Source: an uncultured bacterium (GTDB taxonomy: Bacteria; Actinomycetota; Thermoleophilia; Solirubrobacterales; 70-9). Taken from it: a DNA stretch of 64,000 nucleotides. The notes under the pieces are model-generated. The model was not told the DNA's origin. It ran no database searches and was given only the letters and a program-made list of their open reading frames with translations. The stretch is from contig CAIUSP010000042.1 in assembly GCA_903901855.1 (NCBI GenBank), positions 1 to 64,000 on the forward strand, given 5' to 3'. Positions 4,153 through 44,733 of this stretch are shown piece by piece (position 1 is the stretch's first letter; each line of letters opens with the position of its first letter). Made by a program: the position numbers and the translations under genes.

Positions 4153-4200
4153 GCGGGTTTTATACCCCACCCTGAGGGTCGATGGGCTCAGGACCTGTTC

Positions 4201-7130: not shown

Positions 7131-7156
7131 CTGTAAAGAGGATAGAGAGGCGTCGA

Positions 7157-7948: not shown

Positions 7949-8041
7949 TTGACCGATTCGCTCCGCATAGAAAGAACATGAAACCGCACCGGAGTGCCGA
8001 ACGCGCAACCGGGGTGGCGTTTCCCGCCCCCGGCGCCTGGG

Positions 8042-8314: not shown

Positions 8315-8475
8315 GTGGAATTCTCCTCTCGCTACTTCGACTGTGGGGGTGAGACGATCGCGCCGGGTCTCTCCGACGCCGCGGGATCATGTCACCTGAG
8401 CCAACGGGGCGCCAGAGCCGTTTCCGCAAATGACGGCCTATTTTTTCGCCGCAGTGGGGCTAAGATTGATTCTCG

Positions 8476-30005: not shown

Positions 30006-30077
30006 GGGCGCGTAGCTCAGCGGGAGAGCGCTCGCCTCACACGCGAGAGGTCGCTGGTTCGAACCCAGCCGCGCCCA
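30006..30077 (+). tRNA. tRNA-Val (anticodon CAC)
   Basis: A complete cloverleaf: acceptor GGGCGCG/CGCGCCC, D-arm GCTC...GAGC, anticodon stem CTCGC/GCGAG around loop CTCACAC with anticodon CAC, variable AGGTC, T-arm GCTGG/CCAGC around TTCGAAC, discriminator A; the CCA tail is not encoded. Its 3' end is the apparent integration target of the cassette array that begins immediately downstream; partial copies of its T-arm and acceptor end recur at 30774-30797, 32657-32680, 36136-36159 and 37200-37223. Confidence 0.96.
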
Positions 30078-30104
30078 TCTTCAGGCCGTGTGATACTCCG
30101 GTTC

Positions 30105-30563
30105 TTAGCTCTCGATCATTGGCGCGGTAGCTTCTGCGATACCGGATTGAGACTGCTTCAGGAGGCCAGCTGTAACTACCTGTGTGTCCTCGTAGACGTC
30201 AAACGATTGGGCCTTGCCCCACTTAAGGCCAATGACGTGACAGCCAGGGTTGACGTAGTTGTCACCGTTGAGGAGCGTGGTGGTCGCCACCCAGCGAGCG
30301 ACGACCGTTGTGTTCCATGGTGGCCCCTTTACAAGTACGTCTGTGACGTCGAACTTGAGATCCGGAAGCACCGCACCAACTCGTCTGAGCCATCGCTCCA
30401 AGGCCTCTTTGTCATGGCGCGTTCCACCAAGTGCGTTGTTGCCTGCAAAATGATGGGTCAAGTTTGAATCAGAGATCCCGGCTAGAACCTGGTCATAGTC
30501 GTGATCTTGAACAGCCAGAAATGTTTCGCGAACTTTTTTGGTGACGATTAACTTGTAAATCAT
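30105..30563 (-). CDS. SnoaL-like/NTF2-fold protein
   Basis: A 152-residue protein resembling the SnoaL-like, NTF2-fold superfamily: an N-terminal helix (VRETFLAVQDHDYDQVLAGI), LTHHFAGNNALGGTRHDKEA, and late strands with VVARWVATTTLLNGDNYVNP and HVIGLKWGKAQSFDVYEDTQ. Such folds serve as small hydrolases, cyclases or isomerases, or are non-enzymatic; the function here is unassigned. Its stop is only 27 bp from the tRNA-Val 3' end, it is transcribed toward the tRNA, and it is the sole gene of the first cassette. A GAAAGG ribosome binding site precedes the ATG at 30563. Confidence 0.78.
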   Translation of the reverse strand: MIYKLIVTKKVRETFLAVQDHDYDQVLAGISDSNLTHHFAGNNALGGTRHDKEALERWLRRVGAVLPDLKFDVTDVLVKGPPWNTTVVARWVATTTLLNGDNYVNPGCHVIGLKWGKAQSFDVYEDTQVVTAGLLKQSQSGIAEATAPMIES

Positions 30564-30698
30564 TCGTAATTAGACCTTTCGCCTGGACGTAGAAGTGACT
30601 AATGACCGAGATCTGTTGACCGCGGATGGTTTCAGGCGATGCGGCGGGTAAGAGACCGCTCTCGTCGTTAAGGACCCCGCCGACCGGCTCGGTCACGC
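30564..30698. other. Non-coding left part of a 328-bp gap (with repeat site 1 to its right)
   Basis: The stretch 30564-30891 between the SnoaL-like and DoxX-like genes has no convincing gene. This first part is somewhat AT-richer near the SnoaL-like start, where its promoter should be. The remainder is occupied by repeat site 1 (30699-30797) and the leader of the DoxX-like gene. Confidence 0.5.
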
Positions 30699-30797
30699 GT
30701 AGCAAGCTGCCTGCGGCACAGCTCGGGGCTGTAGAAACCCTGTAGCAAACACCCCGAATCGCCCGCCAACACGGCTGTTCGAACCAGCCGCGCCCAT
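30699..30797 (+). repeat. Cassette boundary site 1 (three GTAGCAA repeats plus tRNA-Val 3' end)
   Basis: GTAGCAAG at 30699, GTAGAAAC at 30731 and GTAGCAAAC at 30742 are spaced 32 and 11 bp, and the tRNA-like core (TTCGAACCAGCCGCGCCCAT) ends at 30797, 55 bp from the third repeat. From 30742 the site is identical over 55 bases to site 2 (32626-32680). It lies at the right end of the first cassette. Confidence 0.85.
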
Positions 30798-30891
30798 CAA
30801 AAACCAGGAACCTTGCGGGGTGGTTCCAGCCGGCCTCTGCCAATGGATAGGAGAGAGGCAGTAGCACCTCGCCTGGTACTTTGGACGCGTT

Positions 30892-31287
30892 ATGACGGTT
30901 GTCGCAATCGCTATCTCGGTGCTGTTGGCACTTGTCTTCGCCCAAGCTGGCCAGAACAAGTTCAGCGGGAGCGAACTCGCCGAGGTCTGTCCGGGACACC
31001 TCGGGATCACGCCCGGCACTTATCGGCTGGTCGGCGTGCTCGAAATCCTCGCAGCGATCGGATTGATCGTCGGGGTCATTGCCGCTCCGGCGCTCGCCGC
31101 CGTCGCCTCGATCGGCCTCGCACTGCTGATGGTGGGCGCGGTGGCCCTGCACCTCCGGGCCGGTGACCCGTTCAGGATCGCGCCAGGCTTCCTCCAACGA
31201 CGGGCGGAATCGATACGAGGCTGGCTCCCTGCGGCCGCACTCGGGTTGCTGGCGATCGCAAATGCCGCGTTGATCCTGACGGACTAG
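30892..31287 (+). CDS. DoxX-like/MauE-like four-helix membrane protein
   Basis: A 131-residue membrane protein with four helices. The first carries the DoxX-type pattern VLLALVFAQAGQNKFSGSE; then YRLVGVLEILAAIGLIVGV and two further helices with LLMVGAVALHLRAGDP. DoxX-like proteins occur in thiosulfate:quinone oxidoreductase and redox-stress complexes, but most small members have no assigned role. The start is the ATG at 30892. It follows boundary site 1 by 94 bp and is followed by a core-only tRNA-end relic at 31302, so it may be a one-gene cassette of its own. Confidence 0.82.
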   Translation: MTVVAIAISVLLALVFAQAGQNKFSGSELAEVCPGHLGITPGTYRLVGVLEILAAIGLIVGVIAAPALAAVASIGLALLMVGAVALHLRAGDPFRIAPGFLQRRAESIRGWLPAAALGLLAIANAALILTD

Positions 31288-31301
31288 CCTGAACCGGCCG
31301 A

Positions 31302-31326
31302 TGGTTCGATCCCAGCCGTGCCCATG
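31302..31326 (+). repeat. Core-only relic of the tRNA-Val 3' end
   Basis: TGGTTCGATCCCAGCCGTGCCCAT differs from the tRNA-Val T-arm/3' end at only two positions over 24 bases, and it keeps the full-length T stem that the four arm-bearing sites lack. No GTAGCAA repeats are found at the expected distances to its left. It lies just after the DoxX-like gene and may mark an older cassette junction. Confidence 0.65.
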
Positions 31327-31459
31327 GCATCTGACCTAACCCGTTCTTGGTGACCTCTTGCCGGCATTCTCCAAACCGATTGACTGCCGGCGGGAGGGAA
31401 ACCATTGCGCCAATGCGGTGTTATTTAAGTTGGATGACAGAGCTAAGCAAGAGAAGCCG

Positions 31460-32575
31460 ATGATGTCTCAGCGTTTTAGCTACGCCACGGGAGCGCTCGT
31501 GATGGCCGTTACCGTCGGAGTCTTGGCATTCGCGGCAAGCAGTTCCGCTCAGGCCGGGACAGTCTGGCTATGCAAGCCAGGCATCAAGTCGAACCCCTGT
31601 GCCGTGTCGATGGGCAACACGGCCGTCTACTCAGATCGAACCACCAAGAAAGAGACGACGGCAGTGCCGAAGTCGCCGCCCGTCGATTGCTTCTACGTAT
31701 ACCCGACCGTGAGCAACCAGACGACGGGAAACGCAAACTTGCGCATTGATCCAGAAGAGATCGCCGTAGCCCAATCCCAAGCCTCACGCTTTCAGGCGAA
31801 GTGCAAGATCTACGCGCCTATGTACAGGCAGTTGACTAGGTCCAGCTCAATGCTCCATGCCGGAACCCCTACGACGCCTGCTGACATGGAACTCCCCTAC
31901 ACCGACGTCAAGGCCGCATGGAAGGAGTACCTCTCCAAGTACAACAAGGGGCGGGGGGTCATTCTGATCGGGCACAGCCAAGGAACAGCCAACCTGACGC
32001 GCCTGGTGAAAGAGGAGATCGACCCGGCTTCGAGCGTTCGGCGCAAGCTCGTCTCGGCGATGCTGATCGGCGGAGCAGTCCTCGTGCCTGAGGGCAAGGA
32101 CGTCGGTGGAAGCTTCCAGCACATTCCGCCCTGCAGGGCTGCCAACCAGACACACTGCGTGATTGCCTACAACAGCTACCTGACCGCGCCGCCCGCGAAC
32201 GGCCAGTTCGGGATCACGCTGAAGCCTGGGATGCGCGTACTGTGCGTCAACCCCAACGCACTAGCCGCCGGAGCCACCGGCTCGGCACTTCCCTACCTGC
32301 CAGCTTCGAGGCTAGCCCCAGTGCTGTCCGCAGCAGGGTTCGCCGCTCCAAGTACTCAATGGGTAAGCCTGCCGGGCATGTACTCGACCCAGTGCAAGTC
32401 GAATGCGACCCACACGTGGCTTCAGGTCAGCGATATCGGTCCGGCTGGTGACCCGCGTCCACACCTAACTCAGAGTCTTGGCCCGGCTTGGGGAATGCAC
32501 ATGACCGACATCAGCCTCAACCTCGGCTCGCTGGTCTCGCTGGCAGGCAAGCAGTCTGCAGCATGGAAGCCGTGA
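31460..32575 (+). CDS. Secreted DUF3089 alpha/beta hydrolase (lipase-like)
   Basis: A 371-residue exported protein. The start is the ATG at 31460 (MMSQRFSYATG), with a signal peptide to about residue 35 (LAFAASSSAQAG). The mature part shows VDCFYVYPTVSNQ, AKCKIYAPMYRQ and the nucleophile elbow VILIGHSQGT, the pattern of the DUF3089 group of alpha/beta hydrolases, several of which are esterases. The Asp/His of the triad lie in the C-terminal half; THTWLQVSDIG and WGMHMTD are candidates. Eight bases after the stop the first repeat of boundary site 2 begins. Paired cysteines suggest disulfides. Confidence 0.87.
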   Translation: MMSQRFSYATGALVMAVTVGVLAFAASSSAQAGTVWLCKPGIKSNPCAVSMGNTAVYSDRTTKKETTAVPKSPPVDCFYVYPTVSNQTTGNANLRIDPEEIAVAQSQASRFQAKCKIYAPMYRQLTRSSSMLHAGTPTTPADMELPYTDVKAAWKEYLSKYNKGRGVILIGHSQGTANLTRLVKEEIDPASSVRRKLVSAMLIGGAVLVPEGKDVGGSFQHIPPCRAANQTHCVIAYNSYLTAPPANGQFGITLKPGMRVLCVNPNALAAGATGSALPYLPASRLAPVLSAAGFAAPSTQWVSLPGMYSTQCKSNATHTWLQVSDIGPAGDPRPHLTQSLGPAWGMHMTDISLNLGSLVSLAGKQSAAWKP

Positions 32576-32582
32576 GCTACGC

Positions 32583-32680
32583 GTAGCAAGCCGGAATCAA
32601 GCATCTGCGTTTCTGTAGCAAACCAGTAGCAAACACCCCGAATCGCCCGCCAACACGGCTGTTCGAACCAGCCGCGCCCA
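32583..32680 (+). repeat. Cassette boundary site 2 (three GTAGCAA repeats plus tRNA-Val 3' end)
   Basis: GTAGCAAG at 32583, GTAGCAAAC at 32615 and GTAGCAAAC at 32626 repeat the 32/11-bp spacing of site 1. The 55 bases from 32626 to 32680 are identical to site 1. The first repeat starts 8 bp after the lipase stop codon. Identity with site 1 stops at the base after CCCA. Confidence 0.85.
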
Positions 32681-32703
32681 CTGCCAACCGAGGGTGGTTC
32701 GAG

Positions 32704-32811
32704 TCAGCCGGTGAACTGCGGCTTGAGCGAACGCAACCAGACGTATCGGGTCACGATGCGCGCTGTTCCGCCGGCGGGGGTATAGGTCACGCGAACCGTG
32801 ACCCTCACGCG
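32704..32811 (-). pseudogene. C-terminal remnant of a secreted/cell-wall repeat-type protein
   Basis: Between boundary site 2 and the tautomerase gene, the minus strand encodes RVTVRVTYTPAGGTARIVTR followed by a short basic tail and a stop at 32704. The beta-rich, Thr/Gly pattern resembles the last strand of secreted beta-sandwich (Ig/Fn3-like) proteins common in this class. The frame has no start or upstream body before the tautomerase gene, so it looks like a truncated relic. The assignment to a relic is tentative. Confidence 0.35.
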
Positions 32812-33254
32812 TCCCCGCTGGCTGCCTCTTCGCGAGCCGCCTTGGCTGCCGCCCGAAGTTGGGCGAAGTCGATGACCTGACCGGCAGCCCCCCAGTTGCC
32901 GTTGGGTACCTCACCGATCAGGACCCAGACCCGGAGCGGGTCGGGCTCGCCGCCGTCGGCCTCAAGGAGGAGGTCGGTGACGTCCTTGACGAGCCCGGCC
33001 TTTCGCTCCTCGTTCATCGCCCCCTCCGGAACGGTGGCATTGACCCGGTAGATCGGCACGTCGGTCGGTACGCCCGCCCGGTTGACCATCCCTTCGGGCA
33101 GCTCGTGAAAGTAGACCCAGCACTGCTGCCGAAAGAAGTCGGTGGCCGGTACGCCTTCCCAGTGCATGAAGGTGGTGGTCAGCTTCTCGGCCAGGTCCTT
33201 GCGGGTCGGCTCGTCGATTGCTCCAGTCGGGTAGGTCACGTCTAGACAGGGCAC
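32805..33254 (-). CDS. Tautomerase superfamily protein
   Basis: A 149-residue protein of the 4-oxalocrotonate tautomerase/cis-CaaD superfamily. I choose the GTG at 33254 because an AGGAG lies 7 bp upstream and because it puts proline directly after the initiator (VPCLDVTYPTG); Pro1 is the catalytic base of the superfamily. The length suggests a two-domain (fused-trimer-like) member. The substrate is not predictable. It is the last gene of the minus-strand group adh-CMD-tautomerase in the third cassette. Confidence 0.82.
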   Translation of the reverse strand: MPCLDVTYPTGAIDEPTRKDLAEKLTTTFMHWEGVPATDFFRQQCWVYFHELPEGMVNRAGVPTDVPIYRVNATVPEGAMNEERKAGLVKDVTDLLLEADGGEPDPLRVWVLIGEVPNGNWGAAGQVIDFAQLRAAAKAAREEAASGDA

Positions 33255-33309
33255 TTGGATTCTCCTATTCGGTTGTTCGTTTGTACTTGCTCGATGACGG
33301 GTTTCGGCT

Positions 33310-33927
33310 TCAGCTTTCCCCGGCTCCGTCTTCCAGGTCTTCAAATCGGGTCGCCCATGGCTCCAGCGGAATCTCCGCGACGTTAATCACGTAGCTGATC
33401 GCGTGGTACCAGCCGGATGTGATGCAGAGCTCGATGATCTGCTCGTCGTCGAGGTATTCTCGCAGCCGTCCAAAAAGGGCGTCGTCGATGGTGCTGTCGC
33501 CGTGGAGGGCATCGGCCATCGCGAAGACGGCCGCTTCGGCGGGCTCCCACACCGGGTCCTCCGGGCTTCCGCTAACCGTTGACGCGAGATGCTCGTCGGT
33601 GAAGCCGAGCGGTCGGCCGAACCCCATCACATGGACTCCCCACTCGTATTCGGCTCCGGTCAGGGCGCAGGTGCGATGAATCATCACTTCCCGCAGCCGG
33701 GGCGGAACGAGCCCCTTGCCGAGGATTCCGGCGCCCAGCGGCCTGGAGCGGGAGGCGAGCTCCTCGTGGCGACCGAGCGTGCGGAACAGGGCGAGCGGCT
33801 CCACGCCACTGCCCGGCGGCATCCACTTGGCCAGCATCGATTCGGTCTCGGGGTCGTATGGGGGCTCAAGTGCGGCGATCCTCGCCTCTCCGAGGCCGAC
33901 CGGGATCTCAGGGGTCTCGTCGGTCAC
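33310..33927 (-). CDS. Carboxymuconolactone decarboxylase (CMD)-like protein
   Basis: A 205-residue protein with the CMD/AhpD-type all-helical fold: LPPRLREVMIHRTCALTGAE followed by YEWGVHVMGFGRPLGFTDEH. This resembles the AhpD-like CxxC region, but only one Cys is present here, so a peroxidase-type dithiol seems absent; the His in GVHVMG is retained. Related proteins act as decarboxylases or lactone/peroxide-linked enzymes. The GTG start at 33927 overlaps the adh stop by 4 bp, showing translational coupling; 55 bp separate it from the tautomerase gene. Confidence 0.87.
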   Translation of the reverse strand: MTDETPEIPVGLGEARIAALEPPYDPETESMLAKWMPPGSGVEPLALFRTLGRHEELASRSRPLGAGILGKGLVPPRLREVMIHRTCALTGAEYEWGVHVMGFGRPLGFTDEHLASTVSGSPEDPVWEPAEAAVFAMADALHGDSTIDDALFGRLREYLDDEQIIELCITSGWYHAISYVINVAEIPLEPWATRFEDLEDGAGES

Positions 33928-34958
33928 CGCGCGAACACGATCTTGATTGCGTCTTCCGTCATCGCCTCGGCCGCATCCTCGAACGGAAGGACCTTGGTGA
34001 TCAGCGCGCCGGGATCCAGCCGGCCCTGCTCCACGAGCTCGATCACCTCCGGAGCGGTGGCCCGAGCCTGCACGCGGCTGACGTCGTAGGTGATTCCCTT
34101 GGCGTACATCGAGGCCAGCGGCACCTCGGTCATCGCCGTCGGGCCGCCGGAGACGCTGGTGCAGTGCCCACAGGCCGACGTGGACCGGAGGGCGAGGTTG
34201 CGCCCGGGCGGCAGGGCGCACGCGTCGACGGTGATCGGGAAGCGCTCCTGCCACTTGAACTCCACGAGCTCGTCAAAGGTCAGGGAGACCGTCTCGGCGC
34301 CGAAGCCCGCCGCGATCTCGGTGCGGCGCTCGTCGAAGTCGACGTAGACCACTCGCTCGGAGCCGAGCGCCAGCGCCGCGGCGACGGCGTAGAGGCCGAC
34401 CGACTGGGCCGGGCCCCCGACCACGAGCACCGGCGCCCCCGGGCTGGCCGCCAGTGGTCCGGCCACGGTGCGGTACCCGTCGGAGACGTTGTCGGGGATC
34501 CCCGCCGCGACCTCAGGGTCGATCGAGCCCGGGAGGGGCAGGAGCATGTGATCGGCCCAGGGAACGCGAACCAGGTCGGCCAGCCCGCCACCGAAGTCCA
34601 TCCCGTCCCGTACCACCAGGCCGTAGGCCGCGCCGAGCGGAACCGACTCACAGGCGTTGGTCAGCCCGGCCATGCACTTCGGGCACTCGCCGCAGCTGAT
34701 CTGGAACGGGACGATCACCCGGTCACCGGCGCTCCAGTCGCCGGCGCGCTCGCCGGCCTCGACGATCTCCCCAACGATCTCGTGGCCCATCGTGAACGGC
34801 GGCTCCATTGGGTAAAGGCCGGTTGCGATGGCCGTGTCCAGGTCGCACCGGGCCACGGCGATTGGCCGCACGATGGCATCCCGATCGTCCTGGATCGCCG
34901 GGTCGGCTGTCTCCTCCCAGCTGAGCTTTCCGACACCGTTGAAGAGCAGGTGCTGCAT
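33924..34958 (-). CDS. Zinc-dependent medium-chain alcohol dehydrogenase
   Basis: A 344-residue MDR-family dehydrogenase. Catalytic zinc ligands are in VARCDLDTA and GHEIVGE; the structural zinc site is CGECPKCMAGLTNAC. The cofactor segment is VLVVGGPAQSVGLYAVAA, where the usual GxGxxG is altered. I place the start at the ATG at 34958 (MQHLLFNGVGKLSW), preceded by GGGAG, rather than at the ATG at 35000: the latter lies inside a palindrome that is likely the TetR operator. It leads the coupled adh-CMD-tautomerase unit, divergent from the TetR gene. Confidence 0.9.
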   Translation of the reverse strand: MQHLLFNGVGKLSWEETADPAIQDDRDAIVRPIAVARCDLDTAIATGLYPMEPPFTMGHEIVGEIVEAGERAGDWSAGDRVIVPFQISCGECPKCMAGLTNACESVPLGAAYGLVVRDGMDFGGGLADLVRVPWADHMLLPLPGSIDPEVAAGIPDNVSDGYRTVAGPLAASPGAPVLVVGGPAQSVGLYAVAAALALGSERVVYVDFDERRTEIAAGFGAETVSLTFDELVEFKWQERFPITVDACALPPGRNLALRSTSACGHCTSVSGGPTAMTEVPLASMYAKGITYDVSRVQARATAPEVIELVEQGRLDPGALITKVLPFEDAAEAMTEDAIKIVFAR

Positions 34959-34998
34959 CGGCCTCCCAAGCGAACCTTCGGTGACTATGACGCGTGGC

Positions 34999-35016
34999 AT
35001 AGTAACACGGTTCTAT
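34999..35016. promoter_or_regulatory. Inverted repeat, probable TetR operator
   Basis: ATAGTAACACGGTTCTAT is an imperfect 18-bp palindrome (six of nine pairs match, including all four outer pairs). It lies between the divergent adh and TetR genes, 41 bp and 18 bp from their starts, the usual place for autoregulation and control of the divergent operon. Operator function is inferred from position and symmetry. Confidence 0.55.
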
Positions 35017-35033
35017 GATGAGCGTCCTAACCG

Positions 35034-35612
35034 ATGGCTGACGACACGCGAGACAGGATGATCATCGGCGCCGCCGGCGTGCTCGCGCAGCGAGGCCTTC
35101 AGGGCACATCATTCAGCGAGGTCATCGAGGCAACCGGTGCGCCACGCGGATCGATCTACCACCACTTCCCCGGCGGCAAGGACGAGATGATCGGCGAGGC
35201 GATCTTCCTGCTCGGGGGTTCGGTCGCCGAACGGATCCGCGCCATCGAGGCGACACGGCCCGAACAGGTTTCCGACGAGTTCATCGAAGGCTGGCGCGAA
35301 TTCGCCAGGGCGACCGACCTCAAAGCCGTGTGCGCGGTCTCGGCCGTGACGGTCGGGGCCGGTGCCGCCGCCCAGGGGCTCCTGCCCGCAGTCGCCTCGA
35401 CGTTCGCCTCCTGGCAGGACGCCCTCGCCGAGGCCTACGCGAGAACCGGCGTCACCAAGGCAGACAGCAAGAGGCTGGCCACCACGACGGTCGCCGCGCT
35501 GGAAGGCGCGCTGATACTTGCCCGCGCTCAGCAAAGCATGGAGCCCTTCGACGCCGTCCAGCACGACCTGGCCGCGATGGCGAGAGCCGCCCGGCGCGGC
35601 CGCTCCACCTGA
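35034..35612 (+). CDS. TetR/AcrR family regulator
   Basis: A 192-residue one-component repressor. The N-terminal helix-turn-helix runs AAGVLAQRGLQGTSFSEVIE followed by GAPRGSIYHHFPGGKDEMIG, close to the LmrA/YxaF subgroup. The C-terminal ligand domain (about 60-190) is alanine-rich with the LmrA-like DLKAVCAVSAVTVG segment. It most likely represses the divergent adh-CMD-tautomerase genes and itself through the palindrome at 34999. The ligand is unknown. The four-helix protein gene follows 38 bp downstream. Confidence 0.92.
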   Translation: MADDTRDRMIIGAAGVLAQRGLQGTSFSEVIEATGAPRGSIYHHFPGGKDEMIGEAIFLLGGSVAERIRAIEATRPEQVSDEFIEGWREFARATDLKAVCAVSAVTVGAGAAAQGLLPAVASTFASWQDALAEAYARTGVTKADSKRLATTTVAALEGALILARAQQSMEPFDAVQHDLAAMARAARRGRST

Positions 35613-35650
35613 CCGTGGCCCGGGAGCAATCAAGCGACATACGAGATCCG

Positions 35651-36064
35651 ATGCGTTTCTGGCTGGCGTGGCTTCGCGTCGCGACGATCCTCCTGATCGC
35701 CTTCGGGCTCTTTCTGGTCGTCGCCCATGGCCTGACGCTGAAGGGCTTCAGCCTCCTCGTCTACTCGTCGAGCGGGCGGATCTCCGAATTCGGTGACGAG
35801 GCCGCCGACTACATCGCGCTGGCCCACGCCGTCCTGGGCGCTGTGATGGTCGGCTGGGGAACGGCGCTCCTCCTCGTCCTGCGCGGACCAATGAAGCGCA
35901 ACGTCCGGGAGGGCGCCCTCATCTTCGCCATCTCGCTCACGTGCTGGTTCATCCCCGACACGATCTTCTCCGTGGCATCCGGGTTCTGGCAGAACGCGCT
36001 ACTCAACGCCGGCTTCGCGGTGCTGTTCGCGATCCCCCTGGTCGCGCTCGTTAGACGCGAGTAG
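35651..36064 (+). CDS. Four-helix membrane protein, unknown function
   Basis: A 137-residue hydrophobic protein with four predicted membrane helices: VATILLIAFGLFLVV, a segment around DYIALAHAVLGAVMVGWGTA, GALIFAISLTCWFIP and ALLNAGFAVLFAIPLVALV. No family is recognised. Its TAG stop lies inside the first GTAGCAC repeat of boundary site 3 at 36061. A decayed copy of its C-terminal half lies in the next-but-one cassette at 37764-37916. The start at the ATG at 35651 is preferred over an upstream GTG. Confidence 0.78.
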   Translation: MRFWLAWLRVATILLIAFGLFLVVAHGLTLKGFSLLVYSSSGRISEFGDEAADYIALAHAVLGAVMVGWGTALLLVLRGPMKRNVREGALIFAISLTCWFIPDTIFSVASGFWQNALLNAGFAVLFAIPLVALVRRE

Positions 36065-36159
36065 CACTCCGGTCGCAGACCCTCTCACCCGAGTAGCAGC
36101 CGGGTAGCAACGCCCCGGAAACGTCAACCGCCAGGGCGGTGCGAACCTGCCGAGCCCAT
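36061..36159 (+). repeat. Cassette boundary site 3 (diverged copy)
   Basis: GTAGCAC at 36061, GTAGCAG at 36093 and GTAGCAAC at 36104 keep the same 32/11-bp spacing, and the tRNA-like core ends CCCAT at 36159, again 55 bp from the third repeat. About 41 of 56 positions from 36104 match site 1 without gaps. The repeat at 36061 supplies the stop codon of the upstream gene. Confidence 0.75.
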
Positions 36160-36174
36160 GGTCAGAGAGGCCGG

Positions 36175-37005
36175 CTAGAAGGCGTTAGGTAGCGCCGCCC
36201 AGGCCACGGCGTCGTGTCCCGGGATCGCGATCGTGTTGGGGTTATTCGTGAGGTATCGCTGGATTCGCCCGAGCGAGTCACGGAAGCCCCGTCGGTCCTG
36301 CATAACCGTCATTTCGAGAACTTCGTGCAGCTGGCGCTCAACATGGGCGGCGTCGCCGCACAAGAGCACGGGGCCGTGCTCTGTTTCAAGCAGGAGCGAG
36401 AGATGCCCAAACGTATGGCCGGGGGTGCGCAAGAGCCTGATGCTCCCGTCTCCGAACAGATCGAGCGTCTCATCGAAGACACCCCACCTCTCTTTCGGCG
36501 CAACGGTCCGGATGCGTCGATGCTCTCTGAGCAGCACCGGGTGGTAGCCGCCGGGCTTCACTGAGGAACCGGGGCGAGTCGCGATCGCAAACTCGGCCTC
36601 ATCCAGCAGCAGTTCGGCATCGGCAAACTGGCGCAGCCCGCTGAGGTGATCCATGTGGCAGTGAGTCATCACGACGATCCGCGGCTGGCCGAGTCCGAGC
36701 GCCTCAAGTTGCGGGGCGACAGGCTCCGCGCGATGGTCGAAGATGAAAGGGCTCGATGGGCCCATCGTGTTCGCTGGATCGTTGGCGACCGAGGGGTCAT
36801 AGCCCGTGTCGACCAGCAGCAGTCCCTCATCGGGGTGTTCGATTGCGAAGGTCGGCACCGGCTGCCACGCCGCGCCGACACGAAGCAGCTGCCGCGCCCA
36901 ACCATGCAGTTGCCCCACTACCCCCGCACCAGAAGGCTTGACACTGAAGGCTGGCGAGAGTCGGATCTCCCCGCCTCGGATCGGATAGACACGCACGACC
37001 GTCAT
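36175..37005 (-). CDS. MBL-fold hydrolase, quorum-quenching lactonase-like
   Basis: A 276-residue metallo-beta-lactamase-fold protein. The zinc-binding motif is VVMTHCHMDHLSGL; further ligands lie in TPGHTFGHLS, CGDAAH and IPGHDA, the order found in N-acyl-homoserine lactonases of the AttM/AiiB type. The start is placed at the ATG at 37005 (MTVVRVYPIRGGEIRL), where family homology begins; the frame extends to 37131 across the boundary repeat, which is unlikely to be coding. It is the only gene of the fourth cassette. Confidence 0.85.
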   Translation of the reverse strand: MTVVRVYPIRGGEIRLSPAFSVKPSGAGVVGQLHGWARQLLRVGAAWQPVPTFAIEHPDEGLLLVDTGYDPSVANDPANTMGPSSPFIFDHRAEPVAPQLEALGLGQPRIVVMTHCHMDHLSGLRQFADAELLLDEAEFAIATRPGSSVKPGGYHPVLLREHRRIRTVAPKERWGVFDETLDLFGDGSIRLLRTPGHTFGHLSLLLETEHGPVLLCGDAAHVERQLHEVLEMTVMQDRRGFRDSLGRIQRYLTNNPNTIAIPGHDAVAWAALPNAF

Positions 37006-37124
37006 GTCGAGCGAAGAATAGTCGGGCGTCCGGTATCTCGGCTTGTCCGCGAATGCAGCGCGACCCAAGGGCCACCGGCACCACAGTCCCGCGCGCGCGG
37101 CGCGCAACAGCGCCTTAGCTACAG

Positions 37125-37223
37125 GCAGCAACCGGACGGCAGGCTGTCGCGTTTCGGTAGCAACCCAGTGGCAACCACCCCGAACCGCCGGTCAACACGG
37201 CAGTTCGAACCAGCCGCGCCCAT
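37125..37223 (+). repeat. Cassette boundary site 4 (three GTAGCAA-like repeats plus tRNA-Val 3' end)
   Basis: GCAGCAAC at 37125, GTAGCAAC at 37157 and GTGGCAAC at 37168 keep the 32/11-bp spacing. The core ends CCCAT at 37223, 55 bp from the third repeat. From the third repeat, 50 of 56 positions match site 1. The following bases CATCAAAA are shared with site 1 too. Confidence 0.82.
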
Positions 37224-37253
37224 CAAAAGTCGGTCCGCGAGTAGTCTGAGAGC

Positions 37254-37607
37254 GTGTTTATTGGACTTCGAACAGTGATCTACCCCGCTCCTGACTTGGC
37301 CGCAGCCAAGGCTTGGTTCACCGAGCTGCTCCAAACAGAGCCTTATTTCGACCAACCCTTTTACGTCGGCTTTGACGTCGGGGGATACGAACTTGGACTG
37401 GATCCGAGCCTCCCTGCCGGTGAGGGACCGACGACGTACTGGGGAGTGGCTAACGCGGATCTTGGCTTGGCCCATCTCCTCGACAAGGGCGCGACCGTTA
37501 TCAGCCCTGTGCAGGATGTCGGCGAAGGTATCCGCGTAGCCCGCGTCGAGACTCCCGACGGGTTCACATTCGGAGTCATCGAGAACCCAAACTTCAAAGC
37601 TAAGTAG
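37254..37607 (+). CDS. VOC family protein (glyoxalase/dioxygenase fold)
   Basis: A 117-residue protein of the vicinal-oxygen-chelate superfamily, one beta-alpha-beta-beta-beta module pair: LRTVIYPAPDLAAAKAWFTE, VGFDVGGYELGLDP, YWGVANADLGLAHLLDKGAT and RVARVETPDGFTFGVIENP. Members include glyoxalase I and antibiotic-binding resistance proteins; this sub-type has no assigned substrate, and metal ligands are not obvious. The start is the GTG at 37254, 30 bp after boundary site 4. Confidence 0.87.
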   Translation: MFIGLRTVIYPAPDLAAAKAWFTELLQTEPYFDQPFYVGFDVGGYELGLDPSLPAGEGPTTYWGVANADLGLAHLLDKGATVISPVQDVGEGIRVARVETPDGFTFGVIENPNFKAK

Positions 37608-37763
37608 CTTCCAATCCCGCTTCCGCGTCGCAGGCTAGAAAGCATGCTTTCTGCCCATTACCGGGCGGAGAGACGGCCTGATTACCAACCGCCCATTCAG
37701 CGCGCTCGACAACACCGACCTCGTAACGAATCCGTTTGATCCAACCTCAGCGAAATAATCCAG

Positions 37764-37916
37764 GTCTACGCCGTCTAACTGACCTGCTGGTTGGTCCCCG
37801 ACACCGTTTTCTCGATCGCTTCGGACTGGTGGCAGAACGCGATCCTCAACTTCGTATTCGCTGTGCTCTTTACAATTCCACCGGCGACACTAACCACCTC
37901 GCGAGGAAGGTCGTGA
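37764..37916 (+). pseudogene. Decayed paralogue of the four-helix membrane protein at 35651
   Basis: The plus strand encodes VYAV, a stop, then LTCWLVPDTVFSIASDWWQN and a further stretch to a TGA at 37914-37916. It aligns without gaps to residues IFAISLTCWFIPDTIFSVAS onwards of the intact gene at 35651-36064, with a stop where that protein has serine. The N-terminal half is missing. This explains the roughly 310-bp gene-free stretch 37608-37919, whose remaining left part holds nothing recognisable. Confidence 0.8.
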
Positions 37917-37919
37917 TCG

Positions 37920-38321
37920 ATGGCAGATGCAAATGAGACACGAAACACGCTCCGCTCCTACGCCGACGCTTGGCTTGCAGGTGATCTCGAGCGAGTACTC
38001 GAGATGTATCACGACGAGATCGTCCTCCACTACATGGGCGAGAGCCCCCTGGCAGGAACCCACACCGGCAAAGATGAGGTCCTCGCGGTACTCGGCCAAG
38101 CCTCTTGGCGGGCATCGCGGAAGCTGATCGAGGTAGAAGACGTACTCGTTGGGGAGAACCTCGGCGCGATCCTCGCCATCGAAGACCTTGGAGACCCTCC
38201 GCGTCGAGTGCGGCGAGTCCTCCTCTACCGAGTGGAAGAGGAAAAGCTGCGGGAGTGCTGGCTCTACGACGAGGACCAGCGCTTCATCGATGGGCTCTGG
38301 TCGTCTGATCCCGGCGAGTAG
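37920..38321 (+). CDS. SnoaL-like/NTF2-fold protein
   Basis: A 133-residue protein of the SnoaL-like superfamily: a N-terminal helix (TRNTLRSYADAWLAGDLERV), LEMYHDEIVLHYMGESPLAG, GKDEVLAVLGQAS, and strands with RRVLLYRVEEEKLRECWLYD. Related family members include polyketide cyclases and ketosteroid-isomerase-like proteins; no catalytic residue set is certain. It is the second SnoaL-like gene of the array (the other is at 30105), but the two are not close copies. It starts at the ATG at 37920, directly after the decayed membrane-protein gene. Confidence 0.83.
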   Translation: MADANETRNTLRSYADAWLAGDLERVLEMYHDEIVLHYMGESPLAGTHTGKDEVLAVLGQASWRASRKLIEVEDVLVGENLGAILAIEDLGDPPRRVRRVLLYRVEEEKLRECWLYDEDQRFIDGLWSSDPGE

Positions 38322-38567
38322 CGAGCCGCAGGTTCGGCAATTCCGGCAAGAGCTGCTTCAAGTCGCCGGACAAAAAACCAAGGCTTGGGGTTGGCTCATA
38401 TCATCAGACATCGCCCAAAGCCTCGAAAACACCACCCCCGCTGGGAAGTCGAAGGCGTGATCTCCTATATGAGCTCTCAGACACTTCTCATCGGCCTCGC
38501 ACTGGTCGTAATCCTCTCGGTGCTCGTGCGCCGCCGAGATCTCCCGGGCGTCCTGGCACCGTCCGAA
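38322..38567. other. Gene-free stretch
   Basis: About 250 bp between the second SnoaL-like gene and the convergent Fn3 protein gene. I see no convincing open frame, no copy of the cassette boundary site at the expected spacing and no tRNA-like core, so the right end of the last cassette cannot be placed. Confidence 0.5.
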
Positions 38568-40148: not shown

Positions 40149-40290
40149 TACCTGATCCCCAATCCCCAGCAACGTCAATTTGTCGAGAGGCCACGGAGCG
40201 ACGGACGTCGCACGTCGATCGGTGACCTGAAGGTACTTGGAGGCAGACTACCAAGCCCAGATCCTTCCTCACGTAAGGAGCCGAAGCCCG

Positions 40291-41280
40291 TTAGTGACCG
40301 AGCTGCCTCATCACCGTCGACATCTGGCCGACCTTGCCGCGCAGGCAGCCGATCGTGTACGGGTACTCATTGTTGGTGTGGTAGTGGTACATGTACTTCT
40401 TCTTGCCGTCCCAACGAATCCAGCCGTAGTGGCCGTGGCATTCGTCGAGCTGAGCATTCGTGATCGGCTTGCGGGTGGAGCCCGTCACAGCACCACGCCG
40501 AGGTCCCTCGCTGTAAGGCCCGTAAATGCCGAAGCCGTCGGCGGCGTAGCCGTATAGCGGCGATGGCTCACCCTTCTTGCCCTGGTTGGGGAAGCACTTC
40601 CACGAAAAGCCGTGGTAGTGGTACTGCTCGGCGTACGGATGGCCCCAGCACTTGTCGTACGGCAGCGCCGCGCTTGGGCTGACCGCCTTGAAGTCAGCAC
40701 TCACGGCGACCTCCGCGTGAATCGCGGCGCCGGTCTGCGATGCAATGCCTACAGCTAGCGATTCGATACAAGAGGGCCTTGGCTGAACCTTCGGGTTCCG
40801 CGGCACAGTCAGCGACATGTCGTACTGACGCACTGGTATCTCGGCAGCGTTCGCATAACCCTGCGCCGGAAGCGCAGCGTAATACGAATAAGCATCACTG
40901 CTCGAAGGGACCGGAAACCGGCCAAACGAATGGTTCGGAATTCCATTCCCCTTCAGGTGGCGCTTTTTCGAGGTGAGCTTGATCGAGAAGCGGTGCTTCT
41001 TCTTGACCGAGCCGGGCACCGTGGGGATGTCAGCAATATTGATCGTGGTCCCAGACACCCAGGGTTCGCTCGCGTTGGTCAACGTCGTTGGGAACGTAAT
41101 ACCCTGGATCACCCGCGGGCAGAAGTACAGCGTGTTCTTTGCCGGGGAGCCAATGCTCGTCCCGGTTGGCGGTGTCTTGAGCGTCGTCGGTACTAAGACG
41201 CACGCGACAACTACTGGCACAACAAGAAGTCCCCCCGCGAACGCCGCAAGGGCGGTGGCCACAAAGCTCCTCATCTTCAT
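40291..41280 (-). CDS. YHYH-domain protein, exported
   Basis: A 329-residue protein with an N-terminal signal or anchor helix (ATALAAFAGGLLVVPVVVAC). The YHYH domain is marked by EQYHYHGFSWKCF, GYAADGFGIYGPY and ECHGHYGWI with a YMYHYHTNNEYPY tail, the repeated Tyr-His signature that suggests metal binding. YHYH proteins are extracellular and mostly uncharacterised. A GGAGG lies 9 bp before the ATG at 41280. It lies between the Fn3 protein and a TetR gene, all on the minus strand. Confidence 0.85.
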   Translation of the reverse strand: MKMRSFVATALAAFAGGLLVVPVVVACVLVPTTLKTPPTGTSIGSPAKNTLYFCPRVIQGITFPTTLTNASEPWVSGTTINIADIPTVPGSVKKKHRFSIKLTSKKRHLKGNGIPNHSFGRFPVPSSSDAYSYYAALPAQGYANAAEIPVRQYDMSLTVPRNPKVQPRPSCIESLAVGIASQTGAAIHAEVAVSADFKAVSPSAALPYDKCWGHPYAEQYHYHGFSWKCFPNQGKKGEPSPLYGYAADGFGIYGPYSEGPRRGAVTGSTRKPITNAQLDECHGHYGWIRWDGKKKYMYHYHTNNEYPYTIGCLRGKVGQMSTVMRQLGH

Positions 41281-41406
41281 TACTCGGCACCTCCATGGAT
41301 CATCGTGGTTTTCCCTGCCACGAAGACTATAACAACCATCTGCTCTTCAGTCGAGGCTGGAGATCCGAGAGGCCGCGCTTGATGGTCTCGTTGGCGTTGC
41401 AGCCGA

Positions 41407-42048
41407 CTACTGAGAGGGTCCGCCAAGCGGTGACAGTGGCGCCTTCACCAACTTGCGTGCACGCGCCGGAGTGAAGCCCACTAGAGAAAGCGCAACCTCG
41501 ACAACAGCATCCGCCTCGTCGGGCTTAGGTTTCGGCAATGACCCCTGCCGAATGAACTCATCGACGAGACAGGCGAGAAAGAGTCGTGTTCGCCTCTCGA
41601 TCTGATCGACTCGAATAACCCCGTCTGCGACGAGGCGTTCGACTCTCGCCCCAAGGTCTACCGTCAGGGCATCCAAATCGATCAGAGTAGTCCGTAAGAC
41701 ACTCAACCCAATACGCGCGAACTCGGGCTGGAACTCGTGACCACGCACCCCCAAGCGGGCCCCAGCGACGAATTGTTCGATCTCGGTGGGCAGATCGGAG
41801 ACAGCCTCCGTCATCCAGGCTTCCCAGCGCTGCAGCACGTCAACGATCGCTGCAGCGAGAAGCCCCTCCTTCGAGCCGAAATGCTTATAGAGAGTGGCGA
41901 TGGAAACACGGGCCGACGCCGCCAAGTCCTCGATCGTTACCTCCGGTCCTCGCTCAGCGATCGTGTCCTGAGCCGAGACAATCAGCGCGGCGCGCCGACG
42001 TTCGAGATGAGCACTTTGGCGACTTGATTTGACGGAATCTTGGGTCAT
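41407..42048 (-). CDS. TetR/AcrR family regulator
   Basis: A 213-residue repressor: N-terminal helix-turn-helix in ALIVSAQDTIAERGPEVTIE and SARVSIATLYKHFGSKEGLL, then a ligand domain with LERLVADGVIRVDQIERRTR, the TetR C-terminal family region 33-like tail. It is on the minus strand upstream of the YHYH gene, 126 bp away, and may control it or its own gene; no operator is evident. The ATG at 42048 is the natural start. Confidence 0.9.
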   Translation of the reverse strand: MTQDSVKSSRQSAHLERRRAALIVSAQDTIAERGPEVTIEDLAASARVSIATLYKHFGSKEGLLAAAIVDVLQRWEAWMTEAVSDLPTEIEQFVAGARLGVRGHEFQPEFARIGLSVLRTTLIDLDALTVDLGARVERLVADGVIRVDQIERRTRLFLACLVDEFIRQGSLPKPKPDEADAVVEVALSLVGFTPARARKLVKAPLSPLGGPSQ

Positions 42049-42122
42049 CTTGGATCCAGCAAGCGACCATACCGAAGGGTCCCAACGGTGGATGGCGAAC
42101 GGCTAGCGGGACCCAGAAGAAG

Positions 42123-42411: not shown

Positions 42412-44733
42412 TCAGCCGCCGTTGCCGGCAGGCACGTAATCGCGCCAGGGCTGGCCGCGAAGGGCGTTGTAGGGCGGCAGGTCGGTCTTGGCGCTGACTC
42501 CGGGCAGGACCGGAAGCACGAGTCTCGAGGCGAACTTGCCTCCGAGCCCGATCGTGTTGGGGATGGTTCCGTCCTCGATCGTGTCGAAGTCCCAGATCTG
42601 ACGGTCGCCACCAGGCGCCTGGATGTTGAGCCTGATCTTGGAGCCCGCACGGAACGCGTGCGCTGCAGGGAACACCGGAACCCTGACCAGCGTCCACTTG
42701 CCGGAAGGCAGCGGAGCGGAGTCCTTCTCGAGATGCGTCGGCACCGGGTTCAACACCGTGGACTTGCTCCGATCGAGCTTGCGGTGCGATGCCCTCAGCC
42801 AACCGCTCTGCACCAGCACCTCCTTGCCGTCGGGCCGGACCTCGGTGAGCGTCGCCTGGAGATCCGTATCCGACGCGGAGGACTTGAGCCAGAGGTCCAC
42901 GCTGATGTCACCTGCGATCACCGTGTCACGCGCCAGGGCGGGAGTGATGAAGCCGAGTCCCCTCCCGTTCACCATCGGCTGCCAGTTGTAGTTGGGCTGC
43001 GCCCGCCACTCGGAACCGTCGGTGATGGTCTGGGCTGGCCTCGCAGCGGGATCTCCGAGATAGCTGGTCGTGTCGAGGCTGGCCGGCCTGGTCGGCTTCA
43101 TGCGACCGCTGTCGCCGGTGAGATACCACGAGGTCGGCTTGACCGACCTGATCGGCCAACTGTCGAAGTTCAACTCCCATGCACCACCCAGAGCGCCCGG
43201 CGAACCGTCGATCGCGTCGCCGTTGTCCATCAGGAGACGCACGCGCTTGTCCCTCCGGAACGCGGTCTTCGCCTTGGCAGCACTCGTGTAGCCGGCGAAC
43301 CTCGACTGCACGATCGGGAGTGCATCGGCACCGACGAATTCCGTATAGAAGAAGTCGCCCAGTCCGAGGACGAGATCAGGCACTCGGGGAACCTCGTTGG
43401 CCACGTACAGCTTCATGAACTCGAACCAGCGGGTCATCGTGCTCGGTCCGAGCGAATCGCCGTGGACTCCGTTCTGCAGGCTGATCCAGACGTTCGGGTT
43501 GCTCTTCAGCCTCGACAGGCTGTCGACGAAGTGCCCACCGGTCTGTTCGTCCTGGAAGGCGCCCACGAGGAAGGTCGGTACCCGGATCTTGTTCATCCAG
43601 AAGGAGGGAGCCCTCTGGGCGAACAGGCGCGGCGTGCGATACGGGTTGTCCTGGATCAACTGCTCGAAGTCGAGGGTCTGCAATCGCATCTCCTGGTTGG
43701 CGGCGCAGGTCGGGTCGTAATCCGGACTCGACGGATCGGCGAGCTCCCGTGCCCAGGGCTGGCCTCCGCCCGGCGCAGGCTCGGCATCGTCGGCGCGCTG
43801 GGTGATCCACGAGAAGGCGAAGCCCTTGTTGAAGATGCCGCCGGGATAGCCCGTCGCCGAGTAGACGTCGTCGGTGACCGACAACGGTGAGATCGCCGCC
43901 AGATGCGGCGGCCGCGTGCCCGCGGTGAGCAACTGGGTGATGCCCGAGAACGAGATCCCGGCCATACCGACCTTTCCGCCCTTCACCCAATCCTGAGCAG
44001 CCACAGTCTCGACCACGTCGTAGCCGTCGTAGATGGTCGGCAGGCCGAACAGGTCGAAGGCGCCACCGGAGCATCCCGAGCCGCGCATCTGCACGCTGAC
44101 CGTGGCGAATCCGAACATCCGACCGAGGGCGCCACCGACGATGGTCGAAGACGCAGGAAGGAGATCCGGGTTACCGGCATCTCCACCGGTGAGGGCTGTG
44201 ATCAGATCTCCGGGCGCCGCGGTCTGATATCCGGAGTACTCGATCAGGGTCGGGAATTTCGCGCCGGCGAGGCTGCTTGCGCCGAAGGGCAGGCGAACCG
44301 TCACCGCCAGCTTGGTGCCGTCACGGGTGGTGACGTAGTTGAGGCCTTGCTGCAGGTCCTGGCGTTCGTAGAAGGTCTGCTTGGGGTGGGCGCCCCTCCG
44401 CTTGACCGTCAGCAAGGGGCTCCGCACGGTGCCGCCACCGGTCGAGCTGGCTACGCGGTACTGGGCGCCCTCCTTGAGGAAGTAGAAGATCTTCGAACCG
44501 TAGGAGTCGGCCACCCCCTGCTGGACCGTCTTGCCTGCAGGTGTGACGAGCTTCAGCGCCTGACCGGGATCTGCGTCGGTCACATGGATCTCGCCGATCG
44601 ATGCAGCCGAGTCGAAGTTCGGCGCAGCGGCATCGGCCTCGGTCGCACCCAGAGCAGCGAACAGCAGCAGCGCGGAGATCGCCCCTGCAGCGACGAGTCT
44701 GGTGTTCCTCCCTGTGCGAACCACCGTGGCCAA
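42412..44733 (-). CDS. Secreted CocE/NonD-type alpha/beta hydrolase (X-Pro dipeptidyl-peptidase-like)
   Basis: A 773-residue exported serine hydrolase. A signal peptide (LVAAGAISALLLFAALGATE) is followed by the catalytic S15 domain, YVTTRDGTKLAVTVRLP, VQMRGSGCSGGAFDLFG and the nucleophile elbow GMAGISFSGITQ; the C-terminal half carries the beta-sandwich (X-Pro dipeptidyl-peptidase C-terminal-like; FITPALARDTVIAGDISVDL). Members cleave X-Pro dipeptides, cocaine-like esters or beta-lactam side chains; the substrate is open. The frame begins at a TTG (44733); a GTG three codons later is an alternative. It is followed downstream by the YdeI gene. Confidence 0.9.
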   Translation of the reverse strand: MATVVRTGRNTRLVAAGAISALLLFAALGATEADAAAPNFDSAASIGEIHVTDADPGQALKLVTPAGKTVQQGVADSYGSKIFYFLKEGAQYRVASSTGGGTVRSPLLTVKRRGAHPKQTFYERQDLQQGLNYVTTRDGTKLAVTVRLPFGASSLAGAKFPTLIEYSGYQTAAPGDLITALTGGDAGNPDLLPASSTIVGGALGRMFGFATVSVQMRGSGCSGGAFDLFGLPTIYDGYDVVETVAAQDWVKGGKVGMAGISFSGITQLLTAGTRPPHLAAISPLSVTDDVYSATGYPGGIFNKGFAFSWITQRADDAEPAPGGGQPWARELADPSSPDYDPTCAANQEMRLQTLDFEQLIQDNPYRTPRLFAQRAPSFWMNKIRVPTFLVGAFQDEQTGGHFVDSLSRLKSNPNVWISLQNGVHGDSLGPSTMTRWFEFMKLYVANEVPRVPDLVLGLGDFFYTEFVGADALPIVQSRFAGYTSAAKAKTAFRRDKRVRLLMDNGDAIDGSPGALGGAWELNFDSWPIRSVKPTSWYLTGDSGRMKPTRPASLDTTSYLGDPAARPAQTITDGSEWRAQPNYNWQPMVNGRGLGFITPALARDTVIAGDISVDLWLKSSASDTDLQATLTEVRPDGKEVLVQSGWLRASHRKLDRSKSTVLNPVPTHLEKDSAPLPSGKWTLVRVPVFPAAHAFRAGSKIRLNIQAPGGDRQIWDFDTIEDGTIPNTIGLGGKFASRLVLPVLPGVSAKTDLPPYNALRGQPWRDYVPAGNGG

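What the first reader, a model, noticed from the sequence alone, without database searches (positions are those of the whole stretch)
30006..38321. Tandem, integrase-free array of cargo cassettes anchored on tRNA-Val
Downstream of tRNA-Val(CAC) four structured sites (30699, 32583, 36061, 37125) cut the region into units of one to five genes. Each site ends in a copy of the tRNA 3' end. The cargo resembles that of integron cassettes: small, independent enzymes and regulators in mixed orientation (SnoaL, DoxX, DUF3089 lipase, tautomerase/CMD/ADH/TetR, MBL hydrolase, VOC). No integrase, transposase or phage gene is visible. I propose non-autonomous cassettes that insert next to each other at one tRNA end using a recombinase encoded elsewhere. 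This is analogous to an integron array, but with a tRNA-derived recombination site.
Basis: partly seen in the sequence, partly recalled or inferred. Interest (0 to 1): 0.9.

Follow-up and report, generated by a model that had tools for sequence, protein, structure and literature searches.

The report
tRNA-anchored array of shuffled gene cassettes
Next to one valine tRNA gene, freshwater Solirubrobacterales collect a row of tiny one-to-five-gene DNA units, each usually ending in the same attachment-like sequence; the same units sit at other positions in other species' rows, so they move between species although these genomes seem to carry no enzyme gene dedicated to moving them.

Summary
Observation confirmed, interpretation largely supported. 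The four sites share one rigid ~105-bp layout: GTAGCAA repeats (consensus: two pairs, 11 bp within a pair, 32 bp between pairs), 30 bp, then a T-loop-to-3'-end copy of tRNA-Val(CAC). Such sites form tandem arrays at the same tRNA in other genera and families of Solirubrobacterales (reversed-pattern control: 0). Whole units recur end to end at other positions: the MBL unit (1064/1064 bp, 94.7%) is fifth here, first in G075; the DoxX unit (528/528 bp, 97.9%) is second here, first in G101, although XerC/XerD of these genomes are only 58-60% identical. Arrays differ on the tRNA side while distal units stay shared, suggesting gain beside the tRNA. Array genomes show no serine recombinase and almost only XerC/XerD. 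Two elements at the same tRNA (G150, G026) carry related integrases (44%), excisionase-like genes and GTAGCA repeats at both ends: candidate source of recombinase in trans. The mobile stretch reaches ~42.1 kb; one internal boundary (31.3 kb) lacks the repeats. tRNA-anchored cassettes are known from other streamlined aquatic bacteria; the conserved site, exact cross-family transfer and candidate integrase appear new. Movement is inferred, not shown.

The parts
30006..30077 (+). tRNA-Val(CAC), anchor and presumed attachment target of the array
   Evidence: ARAGORN, Rfam tRNA 71 bits
30078..30796 (+). unit 1 (719 bp): SnoaL_2 protein gene 30105-30563 (-) and right-end site
   Evidence: boundaries; Pfam; 30095-30589 is 81.8% identical to DNA in the G200 array
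30691..30796 (+). right-end site S1: GTAGCAA at 30699, GTAGAAA at 30731, GTAGCAA at 30742, T-loop/acceptor copy from 30778
30797..31324 (+). unit 2 (528 bp): DoxX_2 gene 30892-31287 (+)
   Evidence: 528/528 bp, 97.9% identical to the unit directly next to tRNA-Val in G101; 87-88% in G016 and G017
31299..31325 (+). boundary without GTAGCAA repeats: copy of the tRNA T-arm and 3' strand (TTCGATCCCAGCCGTGCCCAT)
   Evidence: homology with G101 ends at 31326
31325..32680 (+). unit 3 (1356 bp): DUF3089 gene 31358-32575 (+) and site
   Evidence: Pfam; 31536-32680 is 86.0% identical to a unit of the G197 array
32575..32680 (+). right-end site S2, GTAGCAA at 32583, 32615, 32626
   Evidence: best match to the site model in the window, 98 bits
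32681..36158 (+). unit 4 (3478 bp): tautomerase 32805-33254 (-), CMD-like 33310-33927 (-), zinc ADH 33924-34958 (-), TetR 35034-35612 (+), unassigned protein 35651-36064 (+), site
   Evidence: Pfam; the last gene has a 73.9% relative as the first unit at tRNA-Val in G197
36053..36158 (+). right-end site S3 (the most divergent), GTAGCA at 36061, 36093, 36104
36159..37222 (+). unit 5 (1064 bp): metallo-beta-lactamase-fold hydrolase 36175-37131 (-) and site
   Evidence: 1064/1064 bp, 94.7% identical to the unit directly next to tRNA-Val in G075; protein 95.3%
37117..37222 (+). right-end site S4, repeats at 37125, 37157, 37168
37223..38330 (+). distal, partly decayed units: VOC/glyoxalase 37275-37607 (+), relic 37742-37887 of the unassigned protein of unit 4, SnoaL_2 37920-38321 (+) followed by one arm-like word (GTAGCGA, 38319)
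   Evidence: Pfam; 37918-38329 is 77% identical to the second unit of G101; relic 71% identical to G197
40252..42091 (-). further mobile segment: YHYH protein 40291-41280 (-) and TetR 41407-42048 (-)
   Evidence: 92.3% identical over 1842 bp to DNA next to tRNA-Val in G017, ending there at a tRNA-end copy; Pfam
42412..44724 (-). X-Pro dipeptidyl-peptidase-like gene, probably the chromosomal right flank
   Evidence: relative lies downstream of tRNA-Val in G012 (51% protein identity); Pfam

Best explanation
The region is an array of small non-autonomous mobile units that accumulate at the 3' end of tRNA-Val(CAC) by tyrosine-integrase recombination supplied in trans. SHOWN: most units end in a ~105-bp site made of GTAGCAA direct repeats with fixed helical spacing and a copy of the T-loop/3' strand of the tRNA; whole units, boundary to boundary, recur at other array positions at the same tRNA in other genera and families; the array-bearing genomes carry essentially no recombinase but XerC/XerD; integrase-plus-excisionase elements with GTAGCA repeats occur at the same tRNA in related genomes. 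INFERRED: the GTAGCAA repeats are arm-type binding sites of an integrase of the G150/G026 kind; the tRNA copy is the core where strands are exchanged, 3' of the T-loop; the integrase comes from a transient helper (integrative element, plasmid or phage); new units enter mainly beside the tRNA and push older ones away, like spacers or integron cassettes at their proximal end. The core copy restores the 3' part of the tRNA, so the tRNA gene stays intact at each gain.
For: Rigid repeat spacing in 21 sites from 10 genomes; site model finds 20 of 232 genomes, about 12 of them strongly, mostly at tRNA-Val(CAC) where the contig reaches it. End-to-end unit sharing: MBL 1064/1064 bp 94.7% (position 5 here, 1 in G075), DoxX 528/528 bp 97.9% (2 here, 1 in G101), U10 91.7% (1 in G088, 4 in G101), U5 90-94% (1 in G090, 2 in G075, 5 in G101), the last always followed by the same U3 unit. 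Yardstick: XerC/XerD 58-60% between G000 and G075/G101, syntenic flanking genes 41-83%. Integrase of G150 and G026: 44% identical, both between tRNA-Val(CAC) and a right end with GTAGCA repeats, both with HTH_17 excisionase-like neighbour and left-end GTAGCA repeats 120-160 bp from the tRNA. 20 of 21 aligned sites have a core one base shorter than the tRNA, a form also seen in the right ends of the G026 element, G070 and G175; the C/T in the acceptor strand fits the host's own tRNA in 14 of 15 aligned sites, which places the exchange 3' of the T-loop.
Against: No excised circle, no read-level evidence and no experiment. The cassettes mostly lack left-end repeats, which the integrase-bearing elements have. 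The DoxX unit moves without any GTAGCAA site at its right end, so a second route or a second recombinase is needed for it. G150 and G026 right ends differ from the cassette core in sequence and, for G026, in spacing. Host-allele agreement is not independent of kinship and fails in G090 (L116) and in the Umea contig. Genomes are MAGs, 77-99% complete.
Confidence: 0.75

Rival explanations
1. Homologous recombination: imported DNA (transformation, transduction) recombines at the repeated site sequences and the tRNA, swapping units without any integrase; the sites are only fossil ends.
For: Array genomes hold no dedicated integrase; sites are 80-90% alike between arrays and could serve as short homology; the DoxX unit has no arm-type repeats but is shared by four genomes.
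Against: The MBL and DoxX units are shared exactly from core to core between families whose other genes are 40-83% identical, with only ~20 bp of homology on their left side, too short for efficient homologous exchange by general knowledge. It does not explain why the repeats keep fixed spacing while sequence between them drifts.
Confidence: 0.13
2. Decay: each unit is the leftover of a larger integrative element (ICE, IME or prophage) that integrated with its own integrase and then lost it in place; the units no longer move (CIME by deletion).
For: Integrase-bearing elements of 4.9 and 6.1 kb occupy the same tRNA in G026 and G150; distal units of this array are visibly decayed (37742-38330).
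Against: The same integrase-free unit, of identical length, is found in different families at 95-98% DNA identity, so it moved in its present form. Unit sizes are 0.46-3.5 kb with intact genes and intact sites.
Confidence: 0.1
3. Host XerC/XerD move the units, as in dif-module (pdif/IMEX) systems.
For: XerC/XerD are the only tyrosine recombinases in the own genome and in most array genomes.
Against: By general knowledge Xer sites are ~28 bp dif-like and need no array of arm repeats; the core here is a tRNA copy and G150/G026 pair the same repeats with a non-Xer integrase with an extra N-terminal region. dif itself was not mapped here.
Confidence: 0.04

Closest known systems
tRNA-anchored cassettes of additive flexible genomic islands in 'Ca. 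Actinomarinales' (PMC7771536) and Methylophilaceae (PMC10872708)
   Same: Small gene cassettes inserted at tRNA genes of streamlined aquatic bacteria, recognised by direct repeats of the tRNA 3' part; island grows from its tRNA end; transfer between genera reported (old, ~75% identity); no integrase discussed for these cassettes.
   Different: Here the units carry a conserved ~105-bp end with spaced GTAGCAA repeats, are shared end to end at 91-98% identity across genera and families, and a candidate integrase subfamily at the same tRNA is identified. The papers describe no such conserved end (as far as the passages I read show).
CIME, cis-mobilizable element (Streptococcus ICESt1 relatives; reviewed in PMC5704250) and accretion
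   Same: Element without integration and transfer genes that retains attachment ends and lies in tandem with others at one site.
   Different: CIMEs are described as decayed ICE/IME parts moved in cis with a neighbouring ICE; here units of 0.5-3.5 kb recur singly at new positions with no neighbouring integrase element in the array genomes.
Dehalococcoides ssrA genomic islands (PMC3146451)
   Same: Tandem islands delimited by 20-bp repeats of a tmRNA gene end, 15 of 31 without integration module; exchange point in the T-loop region.
   Different: Those use a serine recombinase (DsiB) present in the same genomes and are larger; no spaced arm-type repeats.
Integron gene cassette arrays
   Same: Tandem single-gene units, each with a recombination site at one end, order differs between strains, gain apparently at one fixed end, recombinase encoded elsewhere.
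   Different: No IntI, no attI, no folded attC (no covarying structure, no Rfam match); sites are tRNA copies with direct repeats; genes in both orientations.
Tycheposons (as described in PMC10872708)
   Same: tRNA-anchored cargo elements with tyrosine recombinase in aquatic bacteria.
   Different: Tycheposons are 4-200 kb and carry their recombinase; these units are about 0.5-3.5 kb and carry none.

Membership tests
tRNA-specific integrative element (island) with tyrosine-integrase att sites | direct repeat of the tRNA 3' end at the distal boundary, tRNA kept intact | tested here: met
   tRNA intact, boundary copies of T-loop to 3' end
tRNA-specific integrative element (island) with tyrosine-integrase att sites | arm-type direct repeats beside the core | tested here: met
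   spaced GTAGCAA repeats in 21 aligned sites; binding by an integrase not testable here
tRNA-specific integrative element (island) with tyrosine-integrase att sites | own integrase gene | tested here: not met
   no integrase in the array; own genome only XerC/XerD
CIME | lacks integration and transfer genes, keeps attachment ends | tested here: met
   gene content; ends (right ends; left ends mostly without repeats)
CIME | mobilised in cis by an adjacent integrative element | tested here: not met
   no integrase-bearing element adjacent in this array; arrays of other genomes break at contig ends
Integron cassette | attC with conserved folded structure | tested here: not met
   four consensus pairs, no compensatory change; no Rfam match
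Integron cassette | intI gene and attI | tested here: not met
   only XerC/XerD-like hits to PF00589 in the own genome; attI not searched as such
Tycheposon | element-borne tyrosine recombinase, 4-200 kb | tested here: not met
   units 0.46-3.5 kb without recombinase
Additive flexible-island tRNA cassettes | small cassettes at a tRNA, delimited by tRNA 3' repeats, differing between strains or species | tested here: met
pdif / Xer-dependent modules | dif-like XerC/XerD sites at the module ends | not tested
   dif of this genome was not mapped; the core is a tRNA copy

The most novel reading that the evidence does not exclude
A tRNA-based counterpart of the integron: a pool of minimal, integrase-free cassettes with a one-sided array of paired arm-type repeats, gained in order beside tRNA-Val(CAC) and exchanged across families of freshwater Solirubrobacterales, driven by an integrase that the hosts do not keep but receive from helper elements.
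Probability: 0.45. Interest if true: 0.85.

Novelty: new variant of a known kind. Interest (0 to 1): 0.7.

Why it matters
Cassettes at tRNA genes have been noted in streamlined aquatic bacteria without a mechanism. This locus gives the conserved end sequence, a candidate integrase family, and a set of single-gene units with exact boundaries that can be followed between species. It makes it testable how small-genome bacteria that keep almost no mobile-element genes still acquire single genes in order at a fixed place.

Tried and rejected
GTAGCAA-GTAGCAA double pattern with wrong spacing found nothing. Looking for a dedicated tyrosine or serine recombinase in the own and the array genomes: only XerC/XerD, a fragment in G197 and in G088, and in G075 one at tRNA-Pro. 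G051 has an integrase at tRNA-Val but without GTAGCA repeats and of another layout. Looking for the integrase in phage and plasmid collections: only distant matches below 60% identity. Viral contigs with the site pattern: three hits each in two scans, those of the first scan look like chance, those of the second were not examined. Other G150-like integrases (G128, G214, G180 and others) were not beside tRNA-Val or GTAGCA repeats in the DNA fetched. Matches of the three-repeat pattern outside Solirubrobacterales in 84,980 genomes look like chance or simple repeats, except an uncultured actinobacterium from Umea. Idea of an RNA element: rejected.
Full report
WHAT IS THERE. tRNA-Val(CAC) sits at 30006-30077. 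Downstream, four sites (30691-30796, 32575-32680, 36053-36158, 37117-37222) are 61-79% alike. Aligning 21 such sites from 10 genomes gives a 105-bp consensus with four GTAGCAA words in two pairs (11 bp within a pair, 32 bp from first to first of the pairs), then 30 bp to TTCGAACCAGCCGYGCCCAT, a copy of the T-loop and 3' strand of the tRNA. In the four window sites the second word is weak; the first, third and fourth are always recognisable, with the same spacing. The alignment folds into only four pairs without compensatory change and Rfam sees only the tRNA: these are DNA recombination-type sites by layout, not RNA elements.

CHANCE. In the own genome the one-mismatch pattern occurs only at this locus; in 232 genomes of the order it occurs in 14, the reversed control in none. 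A sequence-only model of the site finds 20 of 232 genomes, about 12 strongly. Where the contig reaches it, the neighbouring tRNA is tRNA-Val(CAC) in every strong case.

WHO. Titles of matching public records name Solirubrobacterales MAGs, among them from Lac Pavin; other isolate codes (RH-, MH-, Loc, Umea) suggest further lakes and reservoirs, which is my reading of the names.

UNITS MOVE BETWEEN SPECIES. Cutting each locus at the tRNA copies and comparing the pieces: the MBL unit of the window (36159-37222) equals, end to end, the 1064-bp unit directly beside tRNA-Val in G075 (94.7%); the DoxX unit (30797-31324) equals the 528-bp unit directly beside tRNA-Val in G101 (97.9%; protein 100%) and is 87-88% identical to a piece in G016 and G017. 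DUF3089 recurs in G197 (86%), SnoaL in G200 (82%), the second SnoaL in G101 (77%), YHYH+TetR in G017 (92.3%). By contrast XerC and XerD of G000 are 58-60% identical to those of G075 and G101, and syntenic genes upstream of the tRNA are about 41-83%. The upstream synteny also shows that the chromosomal locus is the same.

ORDER. G090: tRNA-U5-U3. G075: tRNA-U9(MBL)-U5-U3. G101: tRNA-U2(DoxX)-U4-x-U10-U5-U3. G088: tRNA-U10-y. The distal pair is shared and the tRNA side differs, as expected if units are gained beside the tRNA. In the genus of G101 the sequence right after the tRNA differs between most species, and several contigs break within 5-160 bp of it. This is a pattern from few genomes, not a formal test; deletion of proximal units would give it too.

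THE RECOMBINASE. The own genome has two PF00589 proteins, XerC and XerD by context and length. The array genomes G090, G096, G100, G101, G198, G200 likewise have two each; G088 and G197 have a third, short fragment, and G075 has a third at tRNA-Pro. None of 13 genomes tested has a serine recombinase domain. Integrase-bearing elements do exist at the same tRNA: G150 (6.1 kb from tRNA to right end) and G026, of the window's own family (4.9 kb). Their integrases are 44% identical over the length, each preceded by a small HTH_17 protein of excisionase type, and both elements have GTAGCA repeats near the tRNA side as well as at the right end. The N-terminal 108 residues of the G150 integrase match AP2 only insignificantly (E 0.19), so arm binding is an analogy to other integrases, not shown. 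G070 has a site with an integrase gene just beyond it.

WHERE STRANDS MAY EXCHANGE. 20 of 21 sites have TTCGAACC where the tRNA has one base more, and the right ends of G026, G070 and G175 share that form; the C/T difference in the acceptor strand agrees with the host's tRNA in 14 of 15 aligned sites. This suggests that DNA 5' of the exchange comes from the unit and DNA 3' of it from the host, with exchange 3' of the T-loop. Exceptions: S3 here, one site in G090 (L116) and the Umea contig.

LIMITS. Cassettes mostly lack left-end repeats. The DoxX unit lacks right-end repeats. The family of the window also uses this tRNA for another class of tandem pieces with longer tRNA 3'-half copies (G022, G016, G045, G034), so more than one recombinase may feed the locus. 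All genomes are MAGs or drafts. No circle, read or experiment was available.

KNOWN OR NEW. Small cassettes at tRNAs, delimited by tRNA repeats, are described for 'Ca. Actinomarinales' (PMC7771536) and for an additive island of freshwater Methylophilaceae with repeats of the last 20 bp of tRNA-Lys (PMC10872708); tandem ssrA islands with and without integration modules for Dehalococcoides (PMC3146451); CIMEs and accretion are reviewed in PMC5704250. A search for Solirubrobacterales with genomic island and integrase gave one unrelated paper. I file the locus as a new variant of tRNA-anchored additive cassettes: it works like an integron-type array, but is not a member of the integrons, and it fits the CIME definition only in part.

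Noticed in passing
L152 (G022:C41), L153 (G016), L154 (G045), L157 (G034): A second class of tandem units at the same tRNA-Val in the window's family, delimited by longer copies of the tRNA 3' half (from the anticodon loop on) and, in G022, by a shared upstream stretch (CCATCCGTGCCTGAGG...).
   Followed up: partly
L114 (G175) 8168-8731: A 564-bp unit between tRNA-Val and a site carries two small genes that look like HicB (8226-8444) and HicA by eye; not confirmed by a family search.
   Followed up: partly
L117 (G026) 4122-8972: Integrase-bearing element at tRNA-Val with an aquaporin-family gene (MIP) and a low-molecular-weight phosphatase/arsenate-reductase-type gene as cargo.
   Followed up: partly
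L033, L036, L037, L042, L116: first ~60 bp after a core copy: Many unit left ends share CAAAAGCCCTTTGAAATCAGGCTCTGCGAGGTCACGGTTCGATACCAG, which contains a short inverted repeat and a second T-arm-like remnant; role unknown.
   Followed up: no
L188 (uncultured actinobacterium Umea2p1): The same kind of site beside a tRNA-Val(CAC) whose 3' half differs from the site's copy (TTCGATCCCAGTACTGCCCA versus TTCGAACCAGCCGCGACCAC).
   Followed up: partly
L177 title (G101 contig): The public record of G101 is titled Bifidobacterium breve, although the locus groups with Solirubrobacterales; probably a wrong organism label.
   Followed up: no
window 38568-40172 (-): Long fibronectin-type-III repeat protein inside the mobile stretch, without a relative in the loci fetched.
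   Followed up: no
L267 (G099:C85): Two tRNA-Val(CAC)-like copies (2032-2105, 95%; 4337-4410, 100%) within 2.3 kb on one contig.
   Followed up: no
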